Shown: positions 2,560-62,827 of the stretch, piece by piece
How positions within the stretch are numbered: the stretch's first letter is position 1
Layout: every line of letters begins with the position of its first letter
Assembly: GCA_963922205.1 (NCBI GenBank)
Contig: CAWUHX010000019.1
Coordinates: 62,001-126,000 of the forward strand
Source: Romanomermis culicivorax
Lineage: Eukaryota; Nematoda; Enoplea; Mermithida; Mermithidae
Reading direction: 5' to 3'
Length of the DNA stretch: 64,000 nt
Position numbers and translations under genes: made by a program
The notes under the pieces: generated by a model
What the model was told of the DNA's origin: nothing
The model's database searches: none
Seen by the model: the letters and a program-made list of their open reading frames with translations, nothing else

Positions 2560-3250
2560 GTTATGATGACATTATGATTCCTGGCAGCCTGTAGCTTTCA
2601 AAGGGAAGTTGGAGATATACATGGTGTCAGCCAGCCATCAGTTTCACAAACAGTACACAAAGTTATTGCAGCCATGGCCTCAATGCCTCCTGAATTCATC
2701 AAATTTCCCGAAAGTCATGAATTCATTCAACAGCAAAGATTATTCTACGAAAAGTATGGCGTTCCTGGAGTAATTGGTGCAATAGACTGCACACACGTCC
2801 CAATTCAGGGTCACGGAGGCAACCAAAATCTCTCAATTAATGTGCAGCTTATGTGTGATTCTAACATGCAAATTCGAAACCTAGTGGCCAGCTGGAAAGG
2901 AAGCACACATGATTCTAGAATTTTTCATGAATCAAATCTTAAAGATAAACTGAAAGCTATGCTGCCACAATTTCGCATATTGGGTGATCGAGGATATCCA
3001 TGCTATAGATATCTGCTGACTCGTTTACCAAACCCCCGAACGCCAGCCCACCAAAGCTACAATGTTGCCCATGTGAGGACTTGATCAGTCATAGAGGGTC
3101 TGAATGGAATTATAAAAAGACGTTTTCCATGCTTAAGCTCAAAGTTGAGATACCTGCAAAAAAAGCTGGTCATGTGATAGTTGCATGTGCAGTCTTGCAT
3201 AATTTATCACTGCAAATTGTGGATAGATTCGAAGAAGATGAAAATTGAGG
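2560..3250 (+). pseudogene. Harbinger/PIF (HARBI1-like) transposase, decayed
   Basis: Codons from about 2580 read into the helix-turn-helix region (GVSQPSVSQTV) and then 2674-3084 encode the DDE core: AIDCTHVPI (first Asp), SWKGSTHDSRIF, LGDRGYP (second Asp), and the Asn/Arg region ahead of VIEGLNGIIKRRFPC, whose Glu would be the third acid. A TGA at 3082-3084 interrupts just before that last motif. A frameshift near 3145 is needed to reach the C-terminal helix (VIVACAVLHNLSLQIV). Another stop precedes 2580. The family cuts and pastes DNA, usually at TWA targets; I could not locate terminal inverted repeats. Inactive. Confidence 0.85.
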
Positions 3251-5932: not shown

Positions 5933-6335
5933 CCCTTAGAGTTTCAAGAAAGATAGGTTTGGTTAGGGCTAAACTAGTTAGGGCTATTTCTTGGCTAGGC
6001 CTCAGATATTGCGCAACAGTTCTGTCCCACCAGACTTGGCAATAACGACAACTCACTTACCTTCTCTAAGGGCCCTCAGAACGGCTCCTTATAGGCTCCC
6101 AGAGGAAAATACTTGTCCTGAGGAAGGAACTTACTTGAAGGATCCCTTAAATGATCTTCCTTCTACTTGACGTCTGCAAGCAACAGCCCTTGGGCCTGTG
6201 GCCCTTCACTAATACTGTAATATGGATGCTAAAATAGTATATTAAGGAAATAAACAAATGGTAAAAGAAGGCAGAAGAACCACTAGATAATTTATGCAAA
6301 TTAAAACACTGTTGCTGGTGACAGGTTAATTGGTG
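5933..6335 (+). repeat. Dispersed repeat interrupted by the LTR element, left part
   Basis: This segment, joined to 15599-15770, aligns with the reverse complement of about 42690-43330. The 9.3-kb LTR element therefore inserted into a copy of a roughly 600-bp dispersed repeat, and the copy at 42.7-43.3 kb is an uninterrupted relative of the target. Confidence 0.7.
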
Positions 6336-7218
6336 TGTAACGACCAGTTTTGAGTGAGGTACTTTACTTCTCAACCAACGGCGTTACGGCGGGGCAAATA
6401 CGGGGCAGGGCGAACGGTTACAACAACAACGGTTAATTCGACGGTCGCTTGAACGTCGACAAATAAAACGCGCTTCGAATAAAAACGGATGGGGGCCTCG
6501 GTTTAAATGCTTTCGAATAGTCGGCCGCTTGCAAATGTATAAAGACGGGGCGAGCGCGGAAAAACACAAGAATAAGAATCAGAATATAATGACCAAAATC
6601 ACGCTTTGCTTCTTCTTTTATACGGCGATTTTGGCCACTCCCTGGACGCTGCGGGAGGTCGAGCTTCTGTCCATTTTCTTCCGCCAATCGTCGTTTCCGG
6701 CTACGCTTTTCATGCTTTCTTAACTACGCCTCTCTAATGCTTTTCTGGTACCGTATGCTTTCTGTGCTTTGCTTGCTTTCTACGGTGGGCTTGGCCACAC
6801 CTCTGTGCTTCTGTGCATGCTTCCTGTATCGGTTTCTTTGTATACACACGTTTTGTGGGGCCGCCGCTACTGTTACACTTGAGACTACTGTACGGCGGGG
6901 CTTCTACATATTTTACTGTGTGCAGGTGTTGTTTACGATTTTTACTGGGGATTACGGTAGCTGTGGAATGTGTAGTTTAGTGTGGGTTCTAGGGGAACAG
7001 CTGCCGTTTGTGCAAATTAATTAGGGCATCTTAATTGGGCTACCGGGGTGTGAACGGATCAAAATAAAGTACTTCACGTAATTTTGTAGGAATGTTTGGG
7101 TGTGAATCCCAGACATCCTTGAGACGATAAAATGTGAAAAATAAAATAATATCTAATAAATGTCTATTACATACAGTATGCTACATGTTTACAGTACTGC
7201 TTTAGCAGGTACGTTACA
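6336..7218 (-). repeat. 3' LTR (relative to element direction)
   Basis: 883 bp, TG...CA termini, with TGTAACG/CGTTACA as a short terminal inverted repeat. Identical by eye to 14716-15598. Small frames inside it occur in both LTRs only because the DNA is identical. Confidence 0.95.
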
Positions 7219-7230
7219 TTTCCCTCCTTC
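7219..7230 (-). promoter_or_regulatory. Polypurine tract
   Basis: On the minus strand GAAGGAGGGAAA directly abuts the 3' LTR. This is the expected position and composition of the plus-strand primer for reverse transcription. Confidence 0.8.
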
Positions 7231-7249
7231 CGGAGTTGAACGTCCTCGT

Positions 7250-10200
7250 TCAAGGCTTTCGAGGTGGAGGAGGGGTGGGGGTAGATTCGTTAGTTGCTTT
7301 CCGAGGGTAGAAAGGGGTTGTCTCGTTTACATGCACGGTAAATGTAATATTCTTATGGGGGTGTTTGAGTGTAACGTTGGGGTACATGAAATTTGTAACT
7401 GTATAGGGACCGTTTTGGCGAGGGAGGAATTTGGGAGTCAACCCTTGTTTACACGAATGATTTTTATAAAGAATAAGATCACCTGCCTTGTAATGTATGT
7501 TCTGAGCGTGCTTGTTATACTGACGGGTATAGTGGGCTTGGGCTTTTTGCAAACTTTTCTGCACAGTTGAGAGGGCTTCTGTAAAATGCGATTTTACACG
7601 AAGGGCGTAATCATTTAAATCAACCATGTAGGGTGTGGGGAAAAAACTTAAAGCTGCATCTGACGGCAGATTAGCTTGCCTAGCGTGGAGTAATTCAAAG
7701 GGGGGATATGATGTGCTATCATTTTTATGGATGTTGATCGAAAAAACGGCATAGGGCAGATAAGTATCCCAATCAGTGTGATTTGAATTGATGTACATGC
7801 GGATACGGGTGGCTAGGGTTTGGTTGCAACGCTCAACTTCTCCATTGGCAATGGGATGATATGGGGTAGTGTGAATTTTCTGAGTATTGCATAAACTGGT
7901 GATCCGTGAGAAAAGATCGGATACGAAATCGGTGCCACGATCACAATGGATGATTTTTGGGGACCCATGACGACAAACAATTTTGGTTACGAATAGCTTG
8001 GCAATAGTGGCCGCGGTGATGTCAGGGGTCGGGAATGCCTCGACATACTTTGTGAAATAATCGATGAAAACGACAATGAATCGGTTGCCGTCTTCAGTGA
8101 GGGGTAACGGTCCCATGCAATCAACACCGACTCTATCAAAGGGGCCAGTCGGCTGAATTGGTACCAAGTTTGCATGCACTTTGTGTCGGAGGGCTTTCTG
8201 TGTTTGGCATGGGTGACAAGTTTTGCAGTACCGTTTGATATCACGGCTCATTTGGGGCCAAAAGTATTTCTGTCTGAGCAAGTGTAAAGTTTTCCGGGCT
8301 GCAAAATGACCTGTGAATTTGCTGTCATGATGTGAGGCGATGAGATGCTGGACTTGGGACTTGGGAATGTATAGTTTTGCCTGTTTGTCGACTATACGGA
8401 AGAGAATGTTTTGATGCACTGCAAATTTGATAAGGGTAAGGGGGTGTTTTTGGGCGATTTTTGCTAAAATACTTTTGACAGTTGGATCAGTGCGTTGGAG
8501 TTCGGCAAAGTTTTTCTGTTGCTCTTCTTGTTCAGTTGCTTCGGCTTCCAAAACTGAATTGATAGTTGATATTTCGGGGCGGGTTTCTAATTGCTCAATA
8601 TCAAAGGATTGCTTTGCTGTCTGTGAGGGGAATCGAGAAACTGCATCTGCGTTGCGGTTAGCAGTGCCTTTCTTAGGTCGAATGTCGAGTTGAATACCAG
8701 AGAGGGCTAATCCCCAACGGGCAATGCGAGGGGACGGGTTTTCCTTTTGTAAGACTGCCTGAACTGCTGTGTGGTCAGTGTGTACAATAACATGTTGCTG
8801 GAAAAGATAAGGGCGGAAATACTTGACAAATTCGACTACTGCAAGGGTTTCCAGCTCAGTGATCGGGTAGTTGCGTTCTGCGGGTTTCAATGTGCGGCTC
8901 CCAAACGCAATGGGGCGATCCTGACCTTTACTATCTAGCTGACTGAGAATGGCGCCGATGCCGAGTTTTGAGGCGTCAGTTTGCAGGATAAACGGTTTTG
9001 TGAAATCGGGATGCTGTAGTATTGGGGCATGAATGAGTAATTCTTTTAGCTTAGTGAATGCATTTTGCTGTTCAGGGCCCCAGGAAAATTCTGAGTTCTT
9101 TTTGAGTAGCGATGTGAGTGGGCTAGAAACTTGAGAGCAATTTGGAATGAATCTGCGGTAATATGAGGGTAGGCCAAGGAATGATTTAACTTCTTTTGAG
9201 CTTTTGGGCGTGGGTATGTCATAGATTGCCTGTACCTTATGGGGATCTGGTGAAATGCCTTGCTGAGAAATGACGTGGCCTAAGTATTGGACTTGGGGCT
9301 GGCAGAATTTGCATTTTTGGATGTTTAGCTTAAGGCCTGCTTGTGAGAATCGGGCAAGAATAGTGTCTAAACGTTCCAGCATTTGGGCATGGGAGTCTGC
9401 GAATACTAAAACATCGTCGAGGTATACAAGGCATGTGTTCCATTGCAGACCCGAAAGAATAACATCCATTAACCTTTGGAATGTGGCTGGGGCATTAGTG
9501 AGTCCAAAAGGGAGGTAATTGAATTGATACTGGCCGGCTGAGCAATTGAAGGCCGTTTTTTCTCTGTCGGCTTGTGCTATGGGGATGGAATAGTATGCAT
9601 TAGATTGGTCAAGGGACGTGAAATATTTCATTCCACGTAGGGTGTCTAAAATTTCGTCTATGCGGGGCAGGGGGTATGTATCTTTTTTGGTGACTTTGTT
9701 GAGGCCTCTAAAATCAATGCATAAACGATGGCCTCCGTCTTTTTTGGGAACTAAAACTGTGTTGGTACACCATGGGGAATTGCTTTGGCTTATGACACCT
9801 GCTGCTGCGAGTTGCTCAACTTCTGCTTGTATGATTTGCTTTTCTTTTGGGGAAGTCCGATAAAGTTGTCTACGTACTGGTTGGGAGCCATTGGTGTCAA
9901 TTGTATGTGAAACGAGGGTGGTTCTACCTACATCCATTTTGGATTTAGCATATAATGTAGGGTACTTCGATAGGGCGCGTAGGAGTTGCATTTTCTCGGT
10001 TTCTGTGAGGTCACTGGAGGTCAAATTGACGTTTTCTTTTAACCATGTGAATGTATCAAAACGGTTGGGCTGGTTTTGCATTGAAGGGGTTAGATTAGCG
10101 GGAGCATTTTGTTTTGGGATGTAACATGAGACTGTACCAATGCATGTTCCAGGATAAAGAATTTGGGCTGTTTCTTGTGTGTTGAGGACGGATATGCGTA

Positions 10201-13200
10201 TGCGACTGTTTTGATTTTCCGAGATACAAGCTGCGAAATGGACTTTGGGATTCTGTTTGGGTTTTGGGGTGAATTCAAGCTGTTTGACCTGTAAGTAGGA
10301 TTTGGGCAAGGGGACAGTAAATTCGGTTACTGTACGGGGTGGTAATTCTAATTTTTCATCTAGATAAGTTCCACCACGAGTTGAAAGAGGGCTATATTCT
10401 AGGCCATCACAAGGTAGTATAACATTGCCAAATTTGACCTGTGATTTTTGATTGTTGATAGTGTATTCCGAAAATCGACTGAGAAAGTTTTTGCCTAGAA
10501 GGATGTCTGCTGTGCAATCTTTTTGGACATGGACCATGATTGTTTCCTGGATTGTTTGGGCTGTCACTGTGACAAAAGTGGTTCCTACAAAGTGAATCGG
10601 GAGATTATTTGCTGCTTTTGCTTGGACTAGCGGGGGTTTCATGTCTAACTGTAAAAGTTGCGCGACTCGGGAATCAATGAGTGAGTAAACTGCATCAGTG
10701 TCAATCATGCCTTTTGTCATTAATTTGCCGTTAAGTGTGATTGGGATGTGAGGGGTATGTTTTTCAGTTACATTCTGGGGTGGCTTGTTTGATGCAGACT
10801 GCTGAATTTGATTGATGAGTTCGATTGCAGGAGTTCGGGGGGTATCAATATCGACAAGGACGTATTTCTGCTGTGTTTGTGCCCCACGACGATTAGCTAA
10901 TTCTAAGAGGGCATGGCCGAATGATGGGGGTATGGCCTCATGTAAATGTCTGTTGTTTGATGGTATTTCGTATGCATGTTCGTTTGTTGCATGATGCTTT
11001 GGAGAGGGGAAATATTTTCGAAGAACGAGGAATGAATAAAAGACGCCTGCAATAACTACAGTAATAACGGCTAGATTTATAATGATTTGCAGGGGTCCTT
11101 TGAGTAAATTGTTTAATCCGTCCGTGAGACTTTGGGTGGTACCGGTTATTACATGTTCTATGCCTTGACCGGCGCCAGAGAGTGTATTTCCGAGTGCTTG
11201 GCCAGTGCCTGAGATCATGTTGTAAACTGTATCGGAATTGAGAGACATTTGGGCGGTATAATTGACGAGTTTTTTGACAGTGTTTTCGAGTGTGTGAGTT
11301 TTGTAAATGTATTGTTTCAAAAAGAGTAAGTTGGTTGAAATAGTTGCAAGTTGATCATGAAAAATGGCGGGTGTATTAAAATGGAAGAGGGAGAAATTTT
11401 GGTTCCAGACAATTTCTAAGGGTAAGTTTGTAACATGGGGGGATCCTGTTTCACTGACCCATGTATTATTCTGTTTGTAAAGGGCTACATGCATGTGATG
11501 GCAGTCAACGGTTTGCGAAAAAGGGGTCAAATCGTTGCCTCCTGGATTTGAAAACATGAGTTCAGTTCCTACGAGAATGGGCAAAAGTTTGTAGCATGTT
11601 TGGTTGATTTTATGGTTGTAAAAGACTTTGGATGCATTTACCTGCTTGCAGGGCCAGACTGTGAGGGCTTCTCCTGTGAATTCTGCTATTATGTCAGTTC
11701 GCTGTAGGAATGCACGCGCTCCAAGGGTTGCATCAAGACGTAAAATTTGCCATACGAGATCAAGGTGACGCTGTGCCTGTCTGCATAATTCATTCCATAC
11801 GTTTTTGAAATTTTGAATTTCGAATTCCTGTATTTTGTCTGCTAGATAGTTTAGTTTTGCATTGATGGGTTCAAAATCATCAAAATCGTATAATGTGGTA
11901 TGAGTTTCGTTGGTTTTTGGGGTTAAAAATGCATTACGATGTGGGGTGCTTTTGTCTAATTGTACAATAATGCCTTGTTCGGTTAGAATGCTGTCTTGGA
12001 TTTCTGGGCAATTGGGGTTTGAAAAGAGTGTGTTTTTAACCGAAAATGCACCTTGTAGCTCTTCTATTATCATGTGTGTTTGCGTGAGTTTGATGGGATG
12101 TGTATTTTTGTATTCGAAGGGGCATAAGTTTTCAAATGCTGTTTCATTCCAGATAATGGATCCGTCGGCTGTGACACAATGGCCTGATGTTGGTTTGCAT
12201 GACCCTAGGTCACCTAATGTACCTGTCATAGATTTTCCATTCCAAGATGCTATTTGTCCTATTTCTATGATGACGTTAGTGACTGAGGTACAATGGTCTG
12301 TACAACACCATGTGTATTCTACGCTTAAGGAGTTATTTGTTGACCAAAATCCTGGTTGGGTTTCGTATAATTTTTGACCGTTGTGTTCTTTGTCTATAAC
12401 GATTGCCTTACAAACATGTGGGGTTAGATTTTGCATTTCGGTTTGGTCGAAGACAATACCTTTTGATCCAAAAAATCCTGTATTAGTACAAATTTTGCGT
12501 TTGCGAACACTGCATTTGTATGCGTCTGTAATGTAGGGCTTAGTGGAGGGGATATAGATTTTTCCGAATGTTTGTACGGGTTTGTCTACTGTGGAAGGGG
12601 GCATGCATGATACAAGTTTTGGTATGCTGACTGAGTGACCGCTCAATGAAGTTCCACACATCTGAAATTGGGCACTACACGATGTGGGGATTATTATACA
12701 TAAAAATATACAATACAATGGCCAATGTAGTGTTTTATTGGAGGCGGCGGGGTACTGTATATTTTCGTTCTGCTCGATTTGGCGTGGCGGCTCTTGGTGT
12801 TGTTCGGTTTTGGGTTGAGGGGGTGGCCGGTTTGAAATCTGAACGGTCTGTAAAATTTTAGAAGTTGAGTTATGGGGTGGGGTTTGGACTTGCTTACTTG
12901 TGGGGGTCGGTAGAAGCGTTTGGCGGGGGCGGAATTGGTAGGGTTCAGGGGTCAGGCCATGGAGAAGGGATAACAAGTTGCGGCCTGTTTTTGACGGGGT
13001 TTCGGGGGCGGTGGGCGGCGTTGTGTCTTGCTTTCGGGGGATCTTGTAGCCTACGGGGATGGTGGGCGGCGATTTTTCGGTTTTTTCAGCTTCAGGCGTG
13101 GGGGGTGGTGACATGGCGCACCAATCGGGTACGTCCAGATCAAGGACGTATTCGTCACTGCGGCGGTGGGTGTTGGGCATGATAGTCCCTAAAGTAGTCT

Positions 13201-14473
13201 GAGGGCCGTTAGTTATGGCGGGTAATTTTGAGTAAAATGCGGGATCATCAATGTCCATGAGGGGTTGGGGTTGCCTGTACTCAATGCAATTTTGAATATT
13301 ACGACTCTGCTGATTTGGACAATACCTGCTTGTATGACCTCTCTGCTTGCATATAAAACATTGAAAATTGGAGTAGGATTTTGAAGGGCAGTTATCTGAT
13401 CTATGTCCTGTTTGGGAGCAGTGGATGCATGGGCTTTTACAATCACGTGTACTGTGATTATTACGGAAACAGATTTCACATGATTTTCGGGTGCCTACTG
13501 ATTTACAATTACGAGCTACGTGTCCGATTTGTCCACACTGGAAGCATGTGGGTTGCCTAGGGGTGGTATTGTTCCTGTGAGCATTATTCCTACTGTAAGT
13601 GTTGTTACCGAAATTGTTGTAGCTACTCTGTTTTGGGGGTTGAGGTTTTTGTTTGATCTGCAACTGTAAATCTTTTACTTGTTGTTCTAACTGATGCAAA
13701 AGATCCTGTTGGTCTGTATTTCTGGTTAGGGAAAAGATGGGTTCGGGTTTTGGGGGTATAAATGGAAGGGTGTTAGATTTCAGCTCATTTCTAAGGATTT
13801 GTTGTTCAATGTAAGCTGCTTCGTCTGACATTTCTTTTAGAGTTGCGAACCTTCTATACTTAATTGCTTCCCTGATTTCGTTTTGCATGCCTTCTACAAA
13901 GAGGGGTTTTATGATCATTTCTCGTGCGTCTGTGTTAAAGTTAGGGTAGGCGAGGGTTGCGAGATGTTCTAGATCAAATAAGAATTCCGTTACTGTTTCT
14001 GATCGCTTTTGTTTTCTTTCGCGTAAGAATTGTTGATGTAGCTCATTATCTCTATTGTTTGGGAAAAATGTCTGTAATGCGACTTTATACTGCTCGTATG
14101 TGTGGGGAGGGTTTTCAGAATTTGCTAAACTTTTGAATTTTGCTAACGCGGCTCCTCCTAAATGAATTTCTAAACATGCCAACTTTAACTGTACGTCTGT
14201 ATCTTTCATGCCTTGGAGTGCCATGAATTGTTCTAATCTTTTGTTCCATTCACCAAAATGTTGGGTCACGCCGCCCGTGAATACTGTAGGTTTCGCGTAG
14301 AAATTGTTTGCCATGTTATTACGAATGTTTGCTGTTCTTAGATCGTCTATTAGGGTAGGGTTTACTGTATTCTGATTCAATTGTGTGCGTAGGGTACGAA
14401 AATGTTCTGAAAATAAATCGTTTATCTGTTCTCTAACGATTTCTCCTAGATGATCTTGCGTTTGGTGGGTCAT
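7250..14473 (-). CDS. Gag-Env-Pol polyprotein of LTR retroelement, 2407 aa
   Basis: One frame encodes every element function. Gag capsid region: residues ~50-230; short coiled coil 253-275; four CCHC zinc knuckles starting at Cys310, Cys332, Cys349 and Cys372; Pro-rich linker 451-575. Then a hydrophobic signal-like segment 582-600, a Cys-rich ectodomain with about nine Asn-glycosylation sequons, and a transmembrane helix ~1130-1151. Protease ~1245-1335 has Asp-Thr-Asp at 1258-1260 where retropepsins have Asp-Thr-Gly. RT ~1540-1740 carries LPFGLTNAPATFQ and YLDD (1684-1687). RNase H ~1825-1945 has acids at 1833, 1875, 1900 and 1943. Integrase has the His2Cys2 finger (His2049, His2056, Cys2086, Cys2089), then Asp2118, Asp2178 and Glu2214 (35 residues between the last two), and a GPY motif at 2355-2357. 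The domain order PR-RT-RH-IN is Ty3/gypsy-like. The first Met is used here, but the frame is open for 77 codons upstream. Confidence 0.95.
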   Translation of the reverse strand: MTHQTQDHLGEIVREQINDLFSEHFRTLRTQLNQNTVNPTLIDDLRTANIRNNMANNFYAKPTVFTGGVTQHFGEWNKRLEQFMALQGMKDTDVQLKLACLEIHLGGAALAKFKSLANSENPPHTYEQYKVALQTFFPNNRDNELHQQFLRERKQKRSETVTEFLFDLEHLATLAYPNFNTDAREMIIKPLFVEGMQNEIREAIKYRRFATLKEMSDEAAYIEQQILRNELKSNTLPFIPPKPEPIFSLTRNTDQQDLLHQLEQQVKDLQLQIKQKPQPPKQSSYNNFGNNTYSRNNAHRNNTTPRQPTCFQCGQIGHVARNCKSVGTRKSCEICFRNNHSTRDCKSPCIHCSQTGHRSDNCPSKSYSNFQCFICKQRGHTSRYCPNQQSRNIQNCIEYRQPQPLMDIDDPAFYSKLPAITNGPQTTLGTIMPNTHRRSDEYVLDLDVPDWCAMSPPPTPEAEKTEKSPPTIPVGYKIPRKQDTTPPTAPETPSKTGRNLLSLLHGLTPEPYQFRPRQTLLPTPTSKQVQTPPHNSTSKILQTVQISNRPPPQPKTEQHQEPPRQIEQNENIQYPAASNKTLHWPLYCIFLCIIIPTSCSAQFQMCGTSLSGHSVSIPKLVSCMPPSTVDKPVQTFGKIYIPSTKPYITDAYKCSVRKRKICTNTGFFGSKGIVFDQTEMQNLTPHVCKAIVIDKEHNGQKLYETQPGFWSTNNSLSVEYTWCCTDHCTSVTNVIIEIGQIASWNGKSMTGTLGDLGSCKPTSGHCVTADGSIIWNETAFENLCPFEYKNTHPIKLTQTHMIIEELQGAFSVKNTLFSNPNCPEIQDSILTEQGIIVQLDKSTPHRNAFLTPKTNETHTTLYDFDDFEPINAKLNYLADKIQEFEIQNFKNVWNELCRQAQRHLDLVWQILRLDATLGARAFLQRTDIIAEFTGEALTVWPCKQVNASKVFYNHKINQTCYKLLPILVGTELMFSNPGGNDLTPFSQTVDCHHMHVALYKQNNTWVSETGSPHVTNLPLEIVWNQNFSLFHFNTPAIFHDQLATISTNLLFLKQYIYKTHTLENTVKKLVNYTAQMSLNSDTVYNMISGTGQALGNTLSGAGQGIEHVITGTTQSLTDGLNNLLKGPLQIIINLAVITVVIAGVFYSFLVLRKYFPSPKHHATNEHAYEIPSNNRHLHEAIPPSFGHALLELANRRGAQTQQKYVLVDIDTPRTPAIELINQIQQSASNKPPQNVTEKHTPHIPITLNGKLMTKGMIDTDAVYSLIDSRVAQLLQLDMKPPLVQAKAANNLPIHFVGTTFVTVTAQTIQETIMVHVQKDCTADILLGKNFLSRFSEYTINNQKSQVKFGNVILPCDGLEYSPLSTRGGTYLDEKLELPPRTVTEFTVPLPKSYLQVKQLEFTPKPKQNPKVHFAACISENQNSRIRISVLNTQETAQILYPGTCIGTVSCYIPKQNAPANLTPSMQNQPNRFDTFTWLKENVNLTSSDLTETEKMQLLRALSKYPTLYAKSKMDVGRTTLVSHTIDTNGSQPVRRQLYRTSPKEKQIIQAEVEQLAAAGVISQSNSPWCTNTVLVPKKDGGHRLCIDFRGLNKVTKKDTYPLPRIDEILDTLRGMKYFTSLDQSNAYYSIPIAQADREKTAFNCSAGQYQFNYLPFGLTNAPATFQRLMDVILSGLQWNTCLVYLDDVLVFADSHAQMLERLDTILARFSQAGLKLNIQKCKFCQPQVQYLGHVISQQGISPDPHKVQAIYDIPTPKSSKEVKSFLGLPSYYRRFIPNCSQVSSPLTSLLKKNSEFSWGPEQQNAFTKLKELLIHAPILQHPDFTKPFILQTDASKLGIGAILSQLDSKGQDRPIAFGSRTLKPAERNYPITELETLAVVEFVKYFRPYLFQQHVIVHTDHTAVQAVLQKENPSPRIARWGLALSGIQLDIRPKKGTANRNADAVSRFPSQTAKQSFDIEQLETRPEISTINSVLEAEATEQEEQQKNFAELQRTDPTVKSILAKIAQKHPLTLIKFAVHQNILFRIVDKQAKLYIPKSQVQHLIASHHDSKFTGHFAARKTLHLLRQKYFWPQMSRDIKRYCKTCHPCQTQKALRHKVHANLVPIQPTGPFDRVGVDCMGPLPLTEDGNRFIVVFIDYFTKYVEAFPTPDITAATIAKLFVTKIVCRHGSPKIIHCDRGTDFVSDLFSRITSLCNTQKIHTTPYHPIANGEVERCNQTLATRIRMYINSNHTDWDTYLPYAVFSINIHKNDSTSYPPFELLHARQANLPSDAALSFFPTPYMVDLNDYALRVKSHFTEALSTVQKSLQKAQAHYTRQYNKHAQNIHYKAGDLILYKNHSCKQGLTPKFLPRQNGPYTVTNFMYPNVTLKHPHKNITFTVHVNETTPFYPRKATNESTPTPPPPRKP
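11015..12730 (-). other. Env-like glycoprotein domain embedded between Gag and protease
   Basis: Residues 582-1153 of the polyprotein look like a type I membrane glycoprotein. There is a 19-residue hydrophobic signal-like segment ending in small residues (Ser-Cys-Ser-Ala, ~597-601). The ectodomain of ~525 residues has many Cys (including a CC pair at 723-724) and sequons at about 682, 713, 776, 855, 946, 957, 1002, 1026 and 1071. A helical stretch ~870-915 leads to a conserved-looking Cys942...Cys960-Tyr segment. Then come a Gly/Ser/Gln amphipathic stretch ~1088-1125, a TM helix ~1130-1151 and a basic stop-transfer (Arg1152-Lys1153). The overall pattern reminds me of class III fusion glycoproteins of the chuvirus / gB type; that is inference, not a demonstrated homology. 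Confidence 0.75.
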
Positions 14474-14704
14474 TCTCGGTTTACGTTGGGATTTCTGCTT
14501 AAATGCTTCAATTTTTGCTTCACGCTGTATTCGTTTAAATGTATCGCTTAATGCTTCGTTGGAGGGGGTTTCCAGTTTGCTTAATACGAATACCGTCTTA
14601 CTGTAGGAAATGATTACTACTGTATTACTAATGCTTCTAAACGCCCGGATAAGAGTACACCTAACTGGGGGCAGGGAGTTCCACTGGTTAACGTAACGGT
14701 ACGG
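14474..14704 (-). other. Open leader in frame with Gag
   Basis: Between a TGA inside the primer binding site (14705-14707) and the first Gag Met (14473) there are 77 codons without a stop in the Gag frame. The part nearest Gag is rich in Lys, Glu, Arg and Ala and reads like helical protein. No in-frame ATG is present, so any extension would need a non-AUG start or splicing. Confidence 0.55.
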
Positions 14705-14710
14705 TCACCA
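14686..14710 (-). promoter_or_regulatory. Primer binding site
   Basis: On the minus strand, TGGTGACCGTACCG starts five bases inside the 5' LTR edge. TGG at this point is the complement of a tRNA CCA end. The acceptor-stem part (GACCGTA) is closest to some tRNA-Arg acceptor stems, but I cannot assign the tRNA with confidence. Confidence 0.7.
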
Positions 14711-14715
14711 AAATA

Positions 14716-15598
14716 TGTAACGACCAGTTTTGAGTGAGGTACTTTACTTCTCAACCAACGGCGTTACGGCGGGGCAAATACGGGGCAGGGCGAACGGTTA
14801 CAACAACAACGGTTAATTCGACGGTCGCTTGAACGTCGACAAATAAAACGCGCTTCGAATAAAAACGGATGGGGGCCTCGGTTTAAATGCTTTCGAATAG
14901 TCGGCCGCTTGCAAATGTATAAAGACGGGGCGAGCGCGGAAAAACACAAGAATAAGAATCAGAATATAATGACCAAAATCACGCTTTGCTTCTTCTTTTA
15001 TACGGCGATTTTGGCCACTCCCTGGACGCTGCGGGAGGTCGAGCTTCTGTCCATTTTCTTCCGCCAATCGTCGTTTCCGGCTACGCTTTTCATGCTTTCT
15101 TAACTACGCCTCTCTAATGCTTTTCTGGTACCGTATGCTTTCTGTGCTTTGCTTGCTTTCTACGGTGGGCTTGGCCACACCTCTGTGCTTCTGTGCATGC
15201 TTCCTGTATCGGTTTCTTTGTATACACACGTTTTGTGGGGCCGCCGCTACTGTTACACTTGAGACTACTGTACGGCGGGGCTTCTACATATTTTACTGTG
15301 TGCAGGTGTTGTTTACGATTTTTACTGGGGATTACGGTAGCTGTGGAATGTGTAGTTTAGTGTGGGTTCTAGGGGAACAGCTGCCGTTTGTGCAAATTAA
15401 TTAGGGCATCTTAATTGGGCTACCGGGGTGTGAACGGATCAAAATAAAGTACTTCACGTAATTTTGTAGGAATGTTTGGGTGTGAATCCCAGACATCCTT
15501 GAGACGATAAAATGTGAAAAATAAAATAATATCTAATAAATGTCTATTACATACAGTATGCTACATGTTTACAGTACTGCTTTAGCAGGTACGTTACA
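14716..15598 (-). repeat. 5' LTR (relative to element direction)
   Basis: 883 bp, identical by eye to 6336-7218. It contains a minus-strand TATA box (see 14995-15002). Transcription from it would read into the polyprotein. Confidence 0.95.
14995..15002 (-). promoter_or_regulatory. TATA box of the 5' LTR
   Basis: TATAAAAG on the minus strand, about 280 bases upstream of the LTR end. This would put the RNA start near 14970, giving a U3 of about 600 bases. The position is inferred from the motif only. Confidence 0.5.
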
Positions 15599-15770
15599 GG
15601 TGGATGCTGGCATAAACCAAGAAAATATTATATCAAAACGAGAATGATTTCACAATCATTTTTCTGTCTTTCTGTGGCGCTCCATTGCTATGCAAATTTT
15701 CTGCACCACTGGTTGTCCACTTTGTCAATTTGCATGTGGAGTTCAAGATCGTGACTTTGCCAGCAAGAGA
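15599..15770 (+). repeat. Dispersed repeat, right part after LTR element
   Basis: Continuation of the repeat broken by the LTR element. Its ATGCTGGCAT and the later GGCGCTCCATTGCTATGCAA segment have counterparts in reverse orientation at about 42735-42930. Confidence 0.7.
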
Positions 15771-17904
15771 ATGCCCAACATCACCGTGTTCAACTGCATT
15801 TCTTTCTTCAATATTCATACTGCTTACAGTTGTTCAACCAGCATACTCGGTGGTCCATTTTCAGCCTGTTTTTGGACTGAAAAAGCCGCCAACTGCCTCT
15901 CCCTCCAGTGGAACTCCTGTCTCCCCCAAAATTTCAGAGCTGCGCAAGTCAGCTTATGAACTGCTGATGGCTGTGAGCAGTTGGTATAGCAGAAGCTTTA
16001 AGTGGCAGTTACAAGCAATGCTGTGTACTGGTCACCAGCATAGCTCCATAACTCATGAGCAGCAAAATCTGCCTAATGTTCAGAAAAATTATGGAATCAA
16101 ACCAACTTTGAGCCAAAAACAATTCAAACATAAGTTAAACTAGTTTATTAGAAAATGCACCCATGGGACAGGAAAAAAGAAAAATATACTTGCTTCAATA
16201 GTTGCCATGCTGGAAAAAGAAGTGGACTAGATTTTTGAGAACTTGGGTAAAAGTTGGAGAAAATTCACTTTCCTTATAGAATTTTCGTTCTTTCTCAAAA
16301 AAAATTTTCCATGTCTGTGAAAAAGTATATTCTGCAGCATCGTGCATTTCGTCCTTCCCCTGGCATCAACTACAGTAAAAGTTTTCTATATGACAATTCT
16401 ATGCACATGATTCCAAATGTGAAGAAATGATAAACCAACAATATTCTAAATCCAGACCAATTCCAAACTTCAGCCTCTCACACTAGCTGGAAAATAGTGT
16501 GGGAGGTATATTATAGTCATTTTCAGGACTATAAAGGAACCTGAGGTTGGTTACACAAACCCAACATGAGTAAAATCTCAACATTGGGATTAAATGATGA
16601 TCCTGAGTTTGAGCTAATCACTATGTCAAACAATACTAACGTCAGGTGTAACTAATGCTGAGGTTATATTTCGAGTTTGGGAATTGCACAAATTTTTAAT
16701 TCTATTTGCGTTAGGGATAAGAAAATTATGCGAAAATGTTAGTGCAACTGGACAGCCTGAGCTGGTGATAATCTGGACATTGAACTCGTTATGATCCTGA
16801 TGACATTCAAATTATACTGAACTTGAGATCAAACCTAGTCGCCTTTTTGTTCGAGATGACCTTGAGCTCGCACACAGAACCCTTTAGTGCAATTGGGCCT
16901 TGGTTACAGTTATTAGGCACCAATCTGCAAATGAGAGAATGGGTAAAGCGTACAAAAATGCTCCTGATTTAGCCGTGCCTGTATTAGGGGTGTGCACCAA
17001 ACCCCATACCTGGTTCTCCCTAACTCTACTGGCACTCCCACATCAACGGTACCACTTTTTATGTGCCACTTTCCCACAGTTGATTCCTTTTGTTGACACC
17101 AAATTCAGTTAAAAGTTTATCACACTTAGGTGGAAGCACACAAGTGTGAAGGGGACATGAGGGAACAAACTAACCCAAAGGTTTTGAAACTGGAAACTTT
17201 GTTATAAAAAAATTTTTTGGTCAACTTTTTTTTGAATTTTTTGTCTCCAAAAACGACATGAATCCAAGGGCCACCTCTGTATCCTCCTCAACATTTCCGA
17301 GATGCAGATATTTGGTAGTAGAGTATGTTGATGCACTCAGCTGCAGAATATACTTTTTCAAAGACATGCAGAAATTTTTTTGAGAAAGAATGAAAATCGA
17401 ATATAACAAAAGAGAATTTTTCCCAACTTTAATTGAATTCCCCATGATCAGAAACATCTACCCTCAAAAATCGCACAAATACATTTGCTCACACTAACAC
17501 ACAATCTCCCTTTTGATCCAGAATTAGATTTTCCTAATCTGTCCGCCATTACCTATCAAATTCTCAGAATTAAAGTTGTGAAACTTTTTATCAGTTGTGG
17601 ACTCAGATGGGTAGAAGCAAAACTCAATGGAACTGCTTATTATTGTGCTGCCCTGGATGTTTTGACAACCCCAATGTTAGATCAACATTTTCCTGTAAAG
17701 AAACTTTCTTGGACAAGAAACAATTCATGTGAGATTCCTTCCTGGATAATCCTCTGCTGTCTCCTCCATTTCAGAACCGACCAATACAGGAGAAAAAGGT
17801 CGAACCTTTGACCATCAAGCTTGGGCGTCAAAAAAACTTGTCACCTAGCAAAATCGTATTTTGCGTTTTTATATCCCTGGCTTTTAAAAAAATTAATCAC
17901 CGCC
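15771..17904. other. No identified gene
   Basis: AT-rich sequence. Frames of about 150 codons (15685-16143) and 108 codons (17485-17811) occur here but have no recognisable motif, no counterpart in the window and no supporting splice or promoter context. I regard them as chance frames. Confidence 0.5.
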
Positions 17905-18166
17905 ACTGGTATCATCAAACATTGCGTATGAGCCCAACTATTGCATAAAAATCAGACTACCGAATAATTATCATTGTTGTGGATGTTAGCTTTACATTTG
18001 TAACATGGCACTGCGTTGCTAAGATCCACAGCTGGAGCCTTCTTCGTCCCCTGAGAAATCAATGGTTTTCGTTTCGAACTCATTTACGAATAAAATTAAA
18101 TTTATAGGTACCTCAATATTTTAGGGTTGACGCCTAAAATAAGTAAAAACGAGCCGCCCTACAGAG

Positions 18167-18640
18167 ATGGTCAACATTTCAATTTTATATAGCATGACTG
18201 GCTCCTCCCCCATCGCTAATGCCAGTGTTACCACCAATCAATATGATATCCCTAATGACAGCCTGAAAGTTAATCGCTCCGCCCCTTTGATGGATTGTGA
18301 AAAACGAAAAACCAACTTTACTACCAATTCCCTTGTTTTGAATGTTGGTCCTGTGTTACCTCCAGGCAGCCTCCAACCACTGCTTAAAGTGGATAAAAGC
18401 TCCCGAATGATAATGAAGTCACCACGAGGCCATCTAAACCACCACAATATAGCCTGCCCAGTTGATAAAATTGTAGCAGACTTTTGATGTCATTTTGAAT
18501 CGCTTTATGATCACACCTACTGGAAGGCATTCACCAAAAATTATGATGTTGCTTGCTTCTATGATATCAGTCCAGCTGCAGCTGCCATTTACAATAGCCC
18601 CAGCCATGCGGCTGCTGTCTACATATCTTCAAAGTTGACC
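18167..18640 (+). pseudogene. Decayed repeat-encoded frame (partner of 760-1246)
   Basis: The frame 18167-18487 shares roughly 80% of residues with its partner, including STGSSPIANAS-like and LPPGSLQPLLKVDKSSRMI segments. It stops at the same TGA as the partner and then remains open in frame to about 18640. Function unknown; part of the duplicated repeat. Confidence 0.5.
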
Positions 18641-18892
18641 ATGCCATGGCCTGGATGAATTTCATGAACAGTTGGTCAATGCTTTGGAAAATGGTACAAA
18701 TCAAGAAGCTAGCAGTATTGCTATTCCATGTTTTTACTAGGGAGTTAAGTCTGCCAAAGCATAATTTATTCCCTTTCTAGGTAATATTTCAACTTATCCG
18801 GGACCTGAAATTCCCTTGAATCCTATTTGATTCGAAATCATTTAACCCTGATTACTACTGAAAAATTATTTATTTATGGTTGGAAAATTTTA

Positions 18893-19238
18893 TTTTTTTG
18901 CTCTTCAGGTGCTTTTTACCACATAGTGGAGGCCACATTCCACAGGCTGGGGTCTGCCTGATGGGCAGGAGTTGATCAGCTACCTACCTACCTACCTCAC
19001 ATTGGAATAGGCCCACCTCCTCATTCGCTGCACTATCACCAGCATGCTAACTTTGCTGAGTGGACAGCAGCAAGCAACGTTCCAAGCTTGTCTACACAAT
19101 TTATCTACCCTCAGAGGATGAAAGGCTGTGTCTGCCTGGGACAGCTACCACAAATTCAATTTCGCATTACACCCCAAATCGAACCTGGTTCTATGAGACT
19201 AGCAGTCAGAGGCAATAACCACTTGACCAAGACGGCCC
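18893..19238 (-). repeat. tRNA-derived SINE, copy 2
   Basis: Same SINE as 173-501, inside the inverted duplicate, with the poly(A) tail at 18893-18899 on the minus strand and the tRNA-like head at the high-coordinate end. It lacks about 95 bases near the tail relative to the copy at 39.3 kb. Confidence 0.75.
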
Positions 19239-19409
19239 TTGGTTGAAAAATTTAAACTTCTAAGGATCAGGTGACTCTTTTTCTGAGAGAAAGAGAGGTC
19301 AAAATCTAAATGCTCTGTTTTTTTCTAACTGTAACTTAAGCTTCCCCTACCTGTCCTGGTCTACAGTGTTCCCTAAACTCCTCTCATGCACTAAATCATC
19401 TCCAGATTA

Positions 19410-28180: not shown

Positions 28181-28862
28181 TACAATTGAGCGTGGGACCA
28201 TTGAGCACCAGACAACTGAGCGCCAGACAACTGAGCGCCAGACACCTGAGCGCCGTGGCAACTGAGCGATAAGACAACTGAGTGCTGAGACAACTGAGTG
28301 CCAGACAACTGAGTCCCAGACAGCTGAGTGCCAGACAACTGAGCGCCAGACAACTGAACGCCAGACAACTGAGCACTGACAACTGATTGCGGGCAACTGA
28401 GCACCAACTATTTAATGGCTTAGGCTTAGGCTTAGGCCTAGGCTCAGGGTCAGGCTTAGGCTTAGGCTTAGGCTTAGGCTTAGGCTTAGGCTTAGGCTTA
28501 GGCTTAGGCTTAGGCTTAGGCTTAGGCTTAGGCTTAGCCTTAGGCTTAGGCTTAGGCTTAGGCTTAGGCTTAGGCTTAGGCTTAGGCTTAGGCTTAGGCT
28601 TAGGCTTAGGCTTAGGCTTAGGCTTAGGCTTAGGCTTAAGCTTAGGCTTAGGCTTAGGCTTAGGCTTAGGCTTAGGCTTAGGCTTAGGCTTAGGCTTAGG
28701 CTTAGGCTTAGGCTTAGGCTTAGGCTTAGGCTTAGGCTTAGCCTTAGGCTTAGGCTTAGGCTTAAAAAACGCTCAATTATAATGCATTAAATAGTCAGCA
28801 CTCAGTTGTGGGCACTCAGTTGTCATGGCGCTCAGTTGTCTGGTGCTCAGTTGTTGGTTAAC
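28181..28862 (+). repeat. Fold-back element with telomeric core, copy 1
   Basis: Left arm 28181-28417: about 15 degenerate 15-bp units of GACAACTGAGCGCCA. Core 28418-28764: about 57 units of TTAGGC. Right arm 28765-28862: inverted units (GCTCAGTTGTCTGGT) preceded by a unique spacer containing CGCTCAATTATAATGCATT. ACTATTTAATG just before the core is the inverse of CATTAAATAGT just after it. The right spacer is shared exactly with the copy at 36-37 kb, so this is one element type, not a chance array. Confidence 0.85.
28418..28764 (+). repeat. Interstitial telomeric repeat (TTAGGC)n, array 1
   Basis: Near-perfect TTAGGC hexamers with a few CTAGGC/TCAGGC variants, G-rich strand on plus. This is the nematode telomere repeat. 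All-frame-open translations such as Gly-Leu repeats are artefacts of the hexamer. Confidence 0.97.
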
Positions 28863-36170: not shown

Positions 36171-37237
36171 CCCAACAATTGAGTGCTGGACAATTGAGCC
36201 CCGACAATTGAGCACCCACAACTGAGTGCCAGACAACTGAGCCCTGTGACAACTGAGCGCTGAGACAACTGAGCGCCAAGACAACTGAGCGCTAGACAAC
36301 TGAGCGCTAGACAACTGAGCGCCAGACAACTGAGTGCCAACAACTGAGGGCTGTGGCTTAGGCTTAGGCCTAGGCTTAGGCCTAGGCATAGGCCTATGCC
36401 CAAACTTAGGCTTAGGCTCAGGCTTAGGCTTAGGCTTAGGCTTAGGCTTAGGCTTAGGCTTAGGCTTATGCTTAGGCTTAGGCTTAGGCTTAGGCTTAGG
36501 CTTAGGCTTAGGCTTAGGCTTAGGCTCAGGCTTAGGCTTAGGCTTAGGCTTAGGCTTAGGCTTAGGCTTAGGCTTAGGCTTAGGCTTAGGCTTAGGCTCA
36601 GGCTTAGGCTTAGGCTTAGGCTTAGGCTTAGGCCTAGGCTTAGGCTAAGGCTTAGGCTTAGGCTTAGGCTTAGGCTTAGGCTTAGGCTTAGGCCTAGGCT
36701 TAGGCCTAGGCATAGGCCTATGCCCAAACTTAGGCTTAGGCTCAGGCTTAGGCTTAGGCTTAGGCTTAGGCTTAGGCTTAGGCTTATGCTTAGGCTTAGG
36801 CTTAGGCTTAGGCTTAGGCTTAGGCTTAGGCTTAGGCTTAGGCTTAGGCTTAGGCTTAGGCTTAGGCTTAGGCTTAGGCTTAGGCTCAGGCTTAGGCTCA
36901 GGCTTAGGCTTAGGCTTAGGCTTAGGCTTAGGCCTAGGCTTAGGCCTAGGCATAAGTCTAGGCCCAGGCTTAGGCTTAGGCTTAGGCTTAGGCTTAGGCT
37001 TAGGCTTAGGCTTAGGCTCAGGCCTCAGTAAATGAAAAAACGCTCAATTATAATGCATTAAATAGTTGGCGCTCAGTTGTGGGCACTCAAATGTCTGGTG
37101 CTCAGTTGTTGGTGCTCAAACATCTGCGGCTCAGTTGTCACAGTGCTCATTTGTCACGTTGCTCAGTTGTCTGGTGCTCAGTTGTCGGGCCCAATTGTCC
37201 GCACTCAATTGTCCGGCACTCAGTTATCCATTAACCC
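36171..37237 (+). repeat. Fold-back element with telomeric core, copy 2
   Basis: Left arm 36171-36354: degenerate 15-bp units (GACAACTGAGCGCTA type). Core 36355-37028: about 111 TTAGGC units. Right arm 37029-37237: the same spacer as copy 1 (AAAAAACGCTCAATTATAAT and onward to TAAATAGT), then inverted units CGGCACTCAATTGTC/GGTGCTCAGTTGTT. Both copies have the G-rich strand on plus. Confidence 0.85.
36355..37028 (+). repeat. Interstitial telomeric repeat (TTAGGC)n, array 2, with higher-order duplication
   Basis: TTAGGC hexamers with a distinctive interruption (CCTAGGCATAGGCCTATGCC) at about 36388 and again at about 36709, and a diverged version near 36948. The array therefore contains a duplicated block of about 320 bp. 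Repeating-residue frames in several frames are artefacts. Confidence 0.95.
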
Positions 37238-39298: not shown

Positions 39299-39740
39299 AA
39301 CTTTTTTTTTTCCAAATTTTTGCGGGTACACCTACCCATTTTCCTATGGCCGGAAAGGCAGGCTTTACAGGACTATACGGTCATACAAGTGCCCACCTTG
39401 TATGAGAGGCGCTCTTTGGGTGCTTTTTACCGCCTAGTGGAGGCCACATTCCACAGGATGGCGTCTGCCTGACAAGCAGGACTTGATTGGCTACCTATCT
39501 CATAATGGAATAGGCCCACCTCCTTATTTGCCACACTATCGCCAACATGCTAACTGGGCTGAGTGGACCGCGGCAAGCTGCTTTCCAAGCTCGCCTACAC
39601 AATTTATCTACCCGGAGAGGATGAAAGGCTGTGTCTGCCTGGGCCAGCTACCAAAAATTCAATTTCGGCTTACACCCGGAATCGAACCTGGTTCTTGAGA
39701 CTAGCAGTCAGAGGCAATAGCCACTAGACCAAGACAACCC
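39299..39740 (-). repeat. tRNA-derived SINE, copy 3, with target duplication
   Basis: Longest and best-preserved copy: about 442 bp, tail poly(A) as T run at 39302-39311, tRNA-like head at the right end with box B reading GGTTCGATTCC on the minus strand and box A TGGTCTAGTGG. It is flanked by the 9-bp direct repeat TTTATCACA (39290-39298 and 39741-39749), the signature of LINE-mediated insertion. Confidence 0.88.
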
Positions 39741-39749
39741 TTTATCACA

Positions 39750-41205
39750 TCATTGTAATCCCAGAAGCAGGTGAAAATGTTATAGTGGGAACAAACTTTT
39801 TGGCTCATTCTCAAGTAAGAGCCATAGTAGATTTCAAGCATAGAACTATGACCCTCGACAATAGGCAACAAAGAATTTACATGACACCAAAGCACCCTCA
39901 AACAAATTTTGGAGAGGTATGACCACAAAAGTTATGGAATCTACAGGGTATGCCACCAATCAATGTCAGCCAAGGATTCGCCTTTCGAAGGTTTCAGTAC
40001 CTCTGGTAAGTTGAGTCTTCCTACCCACTGGTACTGATATAGTGGTCAAAGCAAAGCTTTGCAACAAGGTAAGCAAAAGTTGTATTAGTGGGATCATAGT
40101 AGAGTCTGAAGAAGAAGAGAAAAGGTTAGTACCACATAGTTTTTTAGTCGGTTTCTTTAGTTTTTAGTAGTCAAAGGTTAGTACCATGATACCATAGTAG
40201 ACTGTACTAGAAGTAATTTTGTGATAAAGATATCAAATAGCAAGGGATCAGGATGCCATCTGAAGCAGAATCAGATAATAGGCTATATTGATTCCATGTT
40301 ATGCAATACTTTAAATCAACATCAATTGAAAGGGAAGATAGTCGAAGTAGAGAAGCCGCAAACCAGTGCAGTTCAAGCAAAACCTAACTTGACTCAAACA
40401 TGAGAGAGAGTTTAGGGAAGCCCTGTACAAAGTGTTGGCTAAATCTGACATGCTTCCGATTAGTTGGAAGAAGCTCTAAAATGTTTCTCTAAATATACGG
40501 ACATGTTTAGCTTGTCCAATAATCATCCAACTACTACACCGAACATGAGCTGTAAAATAAATACAGGAAATTCAGCACCTGTGGCTAAATGTTATCACAA
40601 GACAGCTATTAATTTAAGATGGCACATTTGTGAGTGTGTACAAGACATGCTATGGAATGGTGTTATAGAACCATGAAGTGGCCTTGGGCATTGCCTTTGT
40701 TTTTAGTAGGAAAAGGGATGGTAGCAAGTGACCAATAGTGGACTTCAGGGGTATAAATGAGGTCACAAGGGACAACAAATATCCCATTCCCAGAATGGAT
40801 GATTATCTAGACTGTTTAGGAAGAGCCAAATTTTATACAACAATGGATCTGAAGTCTGGTTACAGGCAAGTTCCTATGAATGATGAGAGCGAGGAAAAGA
40901 CTGATTTCATATGTCAGGAAGGGCTATACCAGTTTAAGGTTATGCCTTCTTGTCTAAAAAATGTACCAGTGGAGTTTCAGCATATGATGGAAAGAGTTTT
41001 GCACCCATATGTATGGAAGATCTGTCTGATTCACATAGATAATGTAATCGCCTTCTCAAATACATTTGAGGAACACCTAGTTAATTTAGAGCTAGTCCTG
41101 CAAGCTCTTAAAAAGGCCCAGTTGACTCTAAAGCTGGAGAAGTCTTAATTTCTCCCTGAGAGAATCCATTTTTTGGGACAGTCTTTAGGGCCCTCAGATA
41201 CATGA
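39750..41205 (+). pseudogene. Ty3/gypsy retrotransposon remnant (protease end and RT)
   Basis: 39760-39880 reads the C-terminal half of a retropepsin (VIVGTNFLAHS, then VDFKHRTMTL). After several stops, 40464-40676 encodes the segment ahead of RT (KCFSKYTDMFS). 40738-41148 encodes the RT palm: MDFRGINEVT, YPIPRMDD, FYTTMDLKSGYRQVP, and IHIDN where the family has the YLDD catalytic motif, so the second catalytic Asp is lost. FLPERIHFLG follows beyond a stop. Old and inactive, and not the same lineage as the intact element at 6-15 kb. Confidence 0.88.
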
Positions 41206-62600: not shown

Positions 62601-62827
62601 TCGAATTCCAGTTCACTTCATTCAAAAAAGAAACAATCCTATGTATGCTGAAAATTCACAGACTAGTCTTTTGCTACTGTAGAACATCAATATGACAAAG
62701 TTCTTCCTGGGTCCTGTTTGGATTAAAATGAAAAAATTAAAACAAATTTGAAATTTTTTTTCAAATTGATATAATTGGCACTTTCACCCATAATTATTAA
62801 ATTTCGAACCATTGTAGCTCATTAATT
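59653..62827. other. No identified gene; local repeats
   Basis: 59700-59850 carries the GCGAAATTCC..ACTGTAGAAAGTA motif. 60380-60480 and 60955-61080 hold scattered GGATTTGGATTCAG words. 60693-60748 and 60798-60852 are a ~55-bp direct repeat (CATCCAAGGTCTGGCTCCCT). Frames up to 117 codons have no support. Confidence 0.5.

What the first reader, a model, noticed from the sequence alone, without database searches (positions are those of the whole stretch)
6336..15598. Recently inserted LTR element with an Env-like glycoprotein embedded between Gag and protease in one uninterrupted frame
Seen: identical LTRs, 4-bp target duplication, one 2407-codon frame. Its order is Gag, four zinc knuckles, signal-like segment, glycosylated Cys-rich ectodomain, TM helix, protease, RT, RNase H, integrase. 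Established: retroviruses and errantivirus-like elements place env downstream of pol and express it from a spliced RNA. Inference: here Env would be made as an internal part of Gag-Pol, in equal amounts and membrane-anchored, a different strategy for building an infectious or cell-to-cell transmissible particle. The young age argues that this arrangement works or worked very recently.
Basis: partly seen in the sequence, partly recalled or inferred. Interest (0 to 1): 0.92.

Follow-up and report, generated by a model that had tools for sequence, protein, structure and literature searches.

The report
Retroelement with envelope inside Gag-Pol
A recently inserted virus-like jumping gene, probably in a nematode genome, carries an RNA-virus-type envelope protein in the middle of its single large protein, between capsid and enzymes, where known relatives carry it at the end if they have one.

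Summary
Window 6336-15598 is one LTR element on the minus strand: two identical 883-bp LTRs, target duplication GGTG, one frame of 2407 codons. Order: Gag, four CCHC knuckles, signal-like segment, Cys-rich ectodomain, TM helix, protease, RT, RNase H, integrase. The ectodomain matches Pfam PF24664, Monjiviricetes_fusion, at 6.5e-19, a negative-strand RNA virus glycoprotein, most likely chuvirus-like. Pol is Ty3/gypsy type. A metagenome protein has Env-protease-RT-RNase H in one frame and keeps all 16 ectodomain cysteines. A Romanomermis (mermithid nematode) protein also matches Env. ICTV places Env of Metaviridae downstream of integrase (PMC7879559). Atlas virus has one Gag-Pol-Env polyprotein, with Env last (PMC9094657). 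New here are Env's place and the element type that captured it. Best model: flavivirus-like polyprotein topology, with Env in the lumen and Gag and Pol in the cytosol. RNA, processing and fusion are untested; the host genome could not be searched; this copy's protease motif looks damaged.

The parts
14716..15598 (-). 5' LTR of the element (sense is minus), 883 bp
   Evidence: Identical to the other LTR, 0 mismatches in 883
6336..7218 (-). 3' LTR, 883 bp
   Evidence: GGTG target duplication at 6332-6335 and 15599-15602
14692..14709 (-). Candidate primer-binding site, starts TGG 6 nt after the 5' LTR; tRNA not identified
   Evidence: sequence printed; inference
7219..7231 (-). Polypurine tract next to the 3' LTR
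   Evidence: sequence printed
7250..14473 (-). Single open frame, 2407 aa, Gag-Env-Pol
   Evidence: longest run in 50 shuffles 191 codons
13946..14167 (-). Capsid region, Retrotrans_gag (aa 103-176)
   Evidence: E 2.1e-5, 25.1 bits against a cut-off of 24.1
13319..13546 (-). Four CCHC zinc knuckles (aa 310-385)
12731..13153 (-). C-rich, proline-rich linker (aa 441-581) without Met after aa 454
12671..12730 (-). Internal signal-peptide-like segment (aa 582-601)
   Evidence: holds the second most hydrophobic 11-mer of the frame; function and cleavage site inferred
11087..12670 (-). Glycoprotein ectodomain (aa 602-1129), 16 Cys, 9 sequons
   Evidence: all 16 Cys also in P0004
11393..11914 (-). 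PF24664 Monjiviricetes_fusion match (aa 854-1027)
   Evidence: E 6.5e-19, 67.8 bits against a cut-off of 27
11021..11086 (-). TM helix (aa 1130-1151)
   Evidence: only stretch of the frame above 1.6 mean Kyte-Doolittle over 19 residues; top 11-mer
10475..10744 (-). Aspartic protease (aa 1244-1333); active-site triad reads D-T-D
   Evidence: gag-asp_proteas E 1e-6; D-S-G in P0004
9269..9751 (-). Reverse transcriptase (aa 1575-1735)
   Evidence: RVT_1 E 5.1e-39; Ty3 among the two best solved relatives
8699..9082 (-). RNase H (aa 1798-1925)
   Evidence: RT_RNaseH_2 8.4e-39, RT_RNaseH 2e-37
7853..8368 (-). Integrase: H2C2 zinc domain and rve core (aa 2036-2207)
   Evidence: 3.4e-21 and 9.7e-9; HHCC and D,D(35)E patterns

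Best explanation
This is a Ty3/gypsy-type LTR retroelement, probably of a nematode, that carries a negative-strand-RNA-virus glycoprotein (Monjiviricetes type, most likely Jingchuvirales, probably class III) between nucleocapsid and protease, in frame. Shown: the order, the intact frame, the homology, and the recurrence of Env-protease-RT-RNase H in a second element. [quoted passage not shown] When the internal signal peptide emerges after Gag, the ribosome docks on the ER; signal peptidase cuts near aa 601; the ectodomain enters the lumen and is glycosylated; the TM helix stops transfer; and protease, RT, RNase H and integrase are made back in the cytosol. Gag and Pol thus start out tethered to the same membrane on either side of Env until the protease frees them. 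The topology is that of a flavivirus polyprotein (capsid, internal signal, glycoprotein, enzymes; established knowledge). It would couple Env to every Gag and Pol without splicing and so allow enveloped, possibly transmissible particles.
Confidence: 0.68

Rival explanations
1. Env is made from a spliced subgenomic RNA: an exon with the Gag start codon is joined to a site just upstream of the signal peptide, giving Env or Env-Pol without Gag.
For: A fair acceptor-like site in phase 0 lies at aa 543, 39 codons upstream of the signal segment. Cer1 uses a spliced RNA for CERV (PMC10309623, passages). P0004 as called starts at a Met at the Env start, which could mean that Gag and Env-Pol are separate frames there.
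Against: Acceptor-like sites are no more common than chance, 13 against 13.2; between the LTR and about aa 325 no donor scores above 4.5 of 7.5, though two inside the LTR score 5.0 and 5.2. No in-frame Met follows the aa 543 site before the signal, so a coding 5' exon would be needed.
Confidence: 0.2
2. The Env segment is an in-frame retained intron or optional cassette: spliced RNA makes ordinary Gag-Pol, unspliced RNA makes Gag-Env-Pol.
For: A donor-like site at aa 526 (score 5.2, tied third of 401 GT sites) and an acceptor-like site at aa 1191 are in the same phase, so removal of the stretch between them would keep the frame.
Against: 183 of 2000 shuffles of the two regions have an in-phase pair at least as good by the same thresholds, which I set after seeing the pair; the acceptor is a TAG of middling score.
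Confidence: 0.1
3. The glycoprotein no longer mediates entry: it serves only as a membrane anchor or is a passenger of a recent capture.
For: The protease of this copy looks damaged; no infectivity data.
Against: The segment is kept at 41% identity over 97% of its length, with 16 of 16 Cys, in a second element whose protease is as diverged, 37%, so it is neither a recent passenger nor decaying there. A pure anchor role is not excluded.
Confidence: 0.2
4. Assembly or annotation artefact: two elements joined.
For: None beyond the unusual order.
Against: One frame, identical LTRs and matching target duplication, similar codon use of env and the pol parts (correlations 0.68-0.76), and the same Env-protease order in an independent record.
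Confidence: 0.02

Closest known systems
Atlas virus of Ancylostoma ceylanicum (Belpaoviridae; PMC9094657)
   Same: Nematode LTR element with identical LTRs and a single intron-less polyprotein that includes an Env related to a negative-strand RNA virus (passages).
   Different: Order Gag-Pol-Env with Env last, class II phlebovirus-type Env, BEL/Pao RT. Here Env lies between nucleocapsid and protease, is PF24664 type, and Pol is Ty3/gypsy type.
Nematode BEL/Pao elements with a herpesvirus gB-like Env
   Same: A class III-like Env in a nematode retroelement is already reported: for Tas by PMC9094657, for Cer-7 by PMC7642597; the two papers disagree on which element.
   Different: BEL/Pao elements, Env downstream of the polyprotein.
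Anakin (BEL/Pao elements of mosquitoes; PMC7642597)
   Same: Chuvirus-type glycoprotein captured by an LTR retroelement (passages).
   Different: BEL/Pao family. The passages I saw do not state Anakin's own order.
Jingchuvirales glycoprotein EVEs (PMC10084718)
   Same: Two nematode glycoprotein EVEs related to Charybdivirus (Natareviridae) are reported, and Gypsy fragments lie near glycoprotein EVEs in insects (passages).
   Different: The nematode EVEs are reported as flanked by simple repeats. Complete element boundaries were found in two cases only, Bemisia tabaci (unclassified) and an Anakin, and no clear capture by Gypsy. Here the glycoprotein is inside a complete Gypsy-type element.
Errantiviruses / env-bearing Metaviridae
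   Same: Ty3/gypsy Pol with an Env.
   Different: Env encoded downstream of integrase (PMC7879559, passages).
Cer1 (C. elegans)
Flavivirus polyprotein (established knowledge, not tested here)
   Same: Capsid, internal signal, glycoprotein, TM, then enzymes in one chain.
   Different: Unrelated genome and enzymes; analogy of topology only.

Membership tests
LTR retrotransposon, Ty3/gypsy (Metaviridae) type | Paired LTRs, target duplication, PBS, PPT | tested here: met
   PBS is a candidate only
LTR retrotransposon, Ty3/gypsy (Metaviridae) type | Pol order protease-RT-RNase H-integrase | tested here: met
LTR retrotransposon, Ty3/gypsy (Metaviridae) type | RT closest to Ty3/gypsy | tested here: met
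   Best solved relatives by sequence: 4ol8 (295 bits; Ty3 by recall, its listed name does not say) and 7q5b, named Ty3-G Gag-Pol (293 bits); next 194 bits; 60 of 205 rows shown. No tree with BEL/Pao or Cer1 RT was made.
Metaviridae with env (ICTV description) | Env encoded downstream of integrase, where present | tested here: not met
   Env lies upstream of protease; ICTV wording. So I file Pol as Ty3/gypsy type and do not file the element as an errantivirus.
Belpaoviridae (BEL/Pao) | BEL/Pao-type RT | tested here: inconclusive
   Ty3 is among the best matches, but no BEL/Pao RT is seen in the 60 of 205 rows shown, so the library may lack one
Jingchuvirales / Monjiviricetes fusion glycoprotein | PF24664 above curated cut-off | tested here: met
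   67.8 bits against 27; relatives 52.4 and 61.6 bits. That Monjiviricetes holds Jingchuvirales is recalled.
Jingchuvirales / Monjiviricetes fusion glycoprotein | Signal peptide, ectodomain, one C-terminal TM helix | tested here: met
   Hydrophobicity only
Class III fusion protein | gB-like fold with long central helix and domain IV | tested here: inconclusive
Infectious retrovirus-like agent | Enveloped particles that infect cells | not testable with these tools
   no experiment

The most novel reading that the evidence does not exclude
A lineage of Ty3/gypsy retroelements, in mermithid-like nematodes and possibly other animals, has replaced the retroviral gag-pol-env plan by Gag-Env-Pol in one chain. 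It uses a jingchuvirus-type class III glycoprotein and flavivirus-like membrane topology to build enveloped particles without splicing, with Gag and Pol delivered to the same membrane by Env itself.
Probability: 0.45. Interest if true: 0.88.

Novelty: new variant of a known kind. Interest (0 to 1): 0.78.

Why it matters
Capture of an envelope gene is how retrotransposons are thought to turn into retroviruses (stated in PMC9094657), and the cases whose order I saw put it downstream of pol. An in-frame Env between Gag and protease, with the Env-protease junction kept in a second diverged element, shows another route. It removes the need for splicing and RNA-export control of env, and it predicts a membrane-tethered Gag and Pol. 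It is also a Gypsy-type case of a Monjiviricetes glycoprotein inside a complete element, which a survey of such glycoproteins had not found clearly (PMC10084718, passages).

Tried and rejected
Structure of the whole Env segment: mean pLDDT 30.8 with three sequences, unusable. Core model: mean 38.9, only the blocks of residues 111-150 at 65-74; PDB Foldseek had no match better than E 0.79; viral library and VIA-align rows point to negative-strand glycoproteins and gB domain IV but are weak. Sequence search of Env and of its profile against solved structures: no row at E 1 and two unrelated weak rows at E 10. Viral contigs: 5 of 8 scans used, no relative (in 38, 57 and 75 there were 21, 70 and 148 pattern matches, none confirmed). 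One genome-contig scan: 84 pattern matches, none confirmed. Three protein searches returned one hit each: P0003, P0004, and P0003 again. N-terminal ectodomain alone: no Pfam match. NCBIfam: nothing for Gag or Env. Splicing: judged unsupported. dN/dS between copies could not be tested: the host genome search did not complete in 13 tries, and P0004 is protein only.

None showed an Env between Gag and protease in the listings and passages I saw. One search listed 15 of 15 papers, of which I opened only the Cer1 one; one search listed 15 of 220, none with the term gag-env-pol; two papers reached three terms, and the matching passage of one concerns integrase order in Pseudoviridae, the other (a spumavirus review) I saw as a listing only. 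Preprints and subscription journals are mostly not held.

On re-check I lowered the main confidence from 0.70 to 0.68 and raised the cassette rival from 0.07 to 0.10, because the two sites proved to be in the same phase.
Full report
What is there. The element fills 6336-15598 on the minus strand. The LTRs are 883 bp with no mismatch, bounded by the 4-bp repeat GGTG. One frame of 2407 codons runs 14473 to 7250; in 50 shuffles of the internal region no stop-free run exceeded 191 codons. Pfam on four overlapping pieces gives Retrotrans_gag (2.1e-5), zf-CCHC (1.2e-9), Monjiviricetes_fusion PF24664 (6.5e-19), gag-asp_proteas (1e-6), RVT_1 (5.1e-39), RNase H (8.4e-39), Integrase_H2C2 (3.4e-21) and rve (9.7e-9).

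Relatives. Three protein searches over 5.8 billion sequences, limited to candidates of similar length that share short words, gave two proteins and no glycoprotein of an exogenous virus. P0003 is a 357-aa protein of Romanomermis culicivorax, a mermithid nematode: 53% identical over 46% of the query, with PF24664. P0004 is a 1424-aa metagenome protein, 41% identical over 97% of the Env region, and it continues into protease, RT and RNase H in one frame. All 16 ectodomain cysteines are kept. Identity is 37, 39, 49 and 46% in four Env subregions and 41% in the TM helix, against 37% in protease, 30% in the protease-RT linker, 54% in RT and 63% in RNase H. So Env is neither a recent insertion nor decaying, and the Env-protease junction is shared. 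P0004 starts at the Env, so its Gag side was not seen. A second PF24664 protein in one frame with Pol also argues against an assembly join.

Host. The window holds long arrays of GGCTTA, the nematode telomere unit TTAGGC (that link is recalled). Together with P0003 this points to a nematode, perhaps a mermithid. The host genome could not be searched: 13 requests to the genome search did not complete.

Expression. No in-frame Met occurs between aa 454 and 605, so Env cannot start at its own AUG ahead of the signal. Acceptor-like sites number 13 against 13.2 expected in 200 mononucleotide shuffles, and the best of 401 GT sites scores 6.0 of 7.5 and lies inside Env. Two things deserve a look in RNA data: an acceptor-like site at aa 543 in phase 0, and a donor-like site at aa 526 with an acceptor-like site at aa 1191 in the same phase, whose use would remove Env and keep the frame. 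183 of 2000 shuffles have such a pair as good by the same thresholds, which were set after seeing it. The simplest reading remains translation as one chain with an internal signal peptide. Signal cleavage, stop-transfer at the TM helix and release by the viral protease are inferred. The topology equals that of flavivirus polyproteins (established knowledge, not tested here).

A caution. The protease active-site triad is D-T-D in this copy and D-S-G in P0004. The glycine is nearly invariant in such proteases (recalled), so this copy may be defective or depend on others. Identical LTRs show a recent insertion, not that this copy is still active.

Known background, all from passages. ICTV: in Metaviridae, Env where present is encoded downstream of integrase (PMC7879559). 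[quoted passage not shown] the same paper mentions a gB-like (class III) Env in Tas, while PMC7642597 gives the herpesvirus-like Env to Cer-7. Anakin: chuvirus glycoprotein in mosquito BEL/Pao elements (PMC7642597). A survey of Jingchuvirales glycoprotein EVEs found two in Nematoda, Gypsy fragments near glycoproteins in Hymenoptera and other insects, one Bemisia case within complete element boundaries, and no clear capture by Gypsy or Copia elements (PMC10084718). Cer1 has no stop between gag and pol, and its extra ORF lies after pol (PMC10309623). Ten literature searches, three of them aimed at the order, did not show an Env between Gag and protease, within an open-licence library only.

Verdict. 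It is a new variant of a known kind (envelope capture by an LTR retroelement), new in its place, its host element type and its implied topology.

Noticed in passing
10475-10744: Protease active-site triad reads D-T-D instead of D-T/S-G, while a metagenome relative has D-S-G: this copy's protease may be defective.
   Followed up: partly
28417-28764 and 36355-37023: Two long interstitial arrays of the nematode telomere unit (GGCTTA/TTAGGC), each flanked by arrays of a 15-bp unit (ACAACTGAGCGC-like), in opposite orientation on the two sides.
   Followed up: no
87-1492 and 17897-19324: Inverted copies of a repeat of about 1.4 kb, 92-96% alike in its longer blocks, on either side of the element; a further partial copy at 39411-39695.
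   Followed up: no
2578-3081, 40732-41145, 62801-63274: Other transposon fragments: DDE_Tnp_4, a reverse transcriptase piece, a Mos1-type HTH (ten ORFs tested).
   Followed up: no
12731-13153: Linker between the knuckles and Env is C-rich (40% C in the sense strand) and its codon use correlates poorly with gag, env and protease (0.18-0.25).
   Followed up: no
14474-14704: The frame stays open for 77 codons upstream of the first ATG, into the leader.
   Followed up: no
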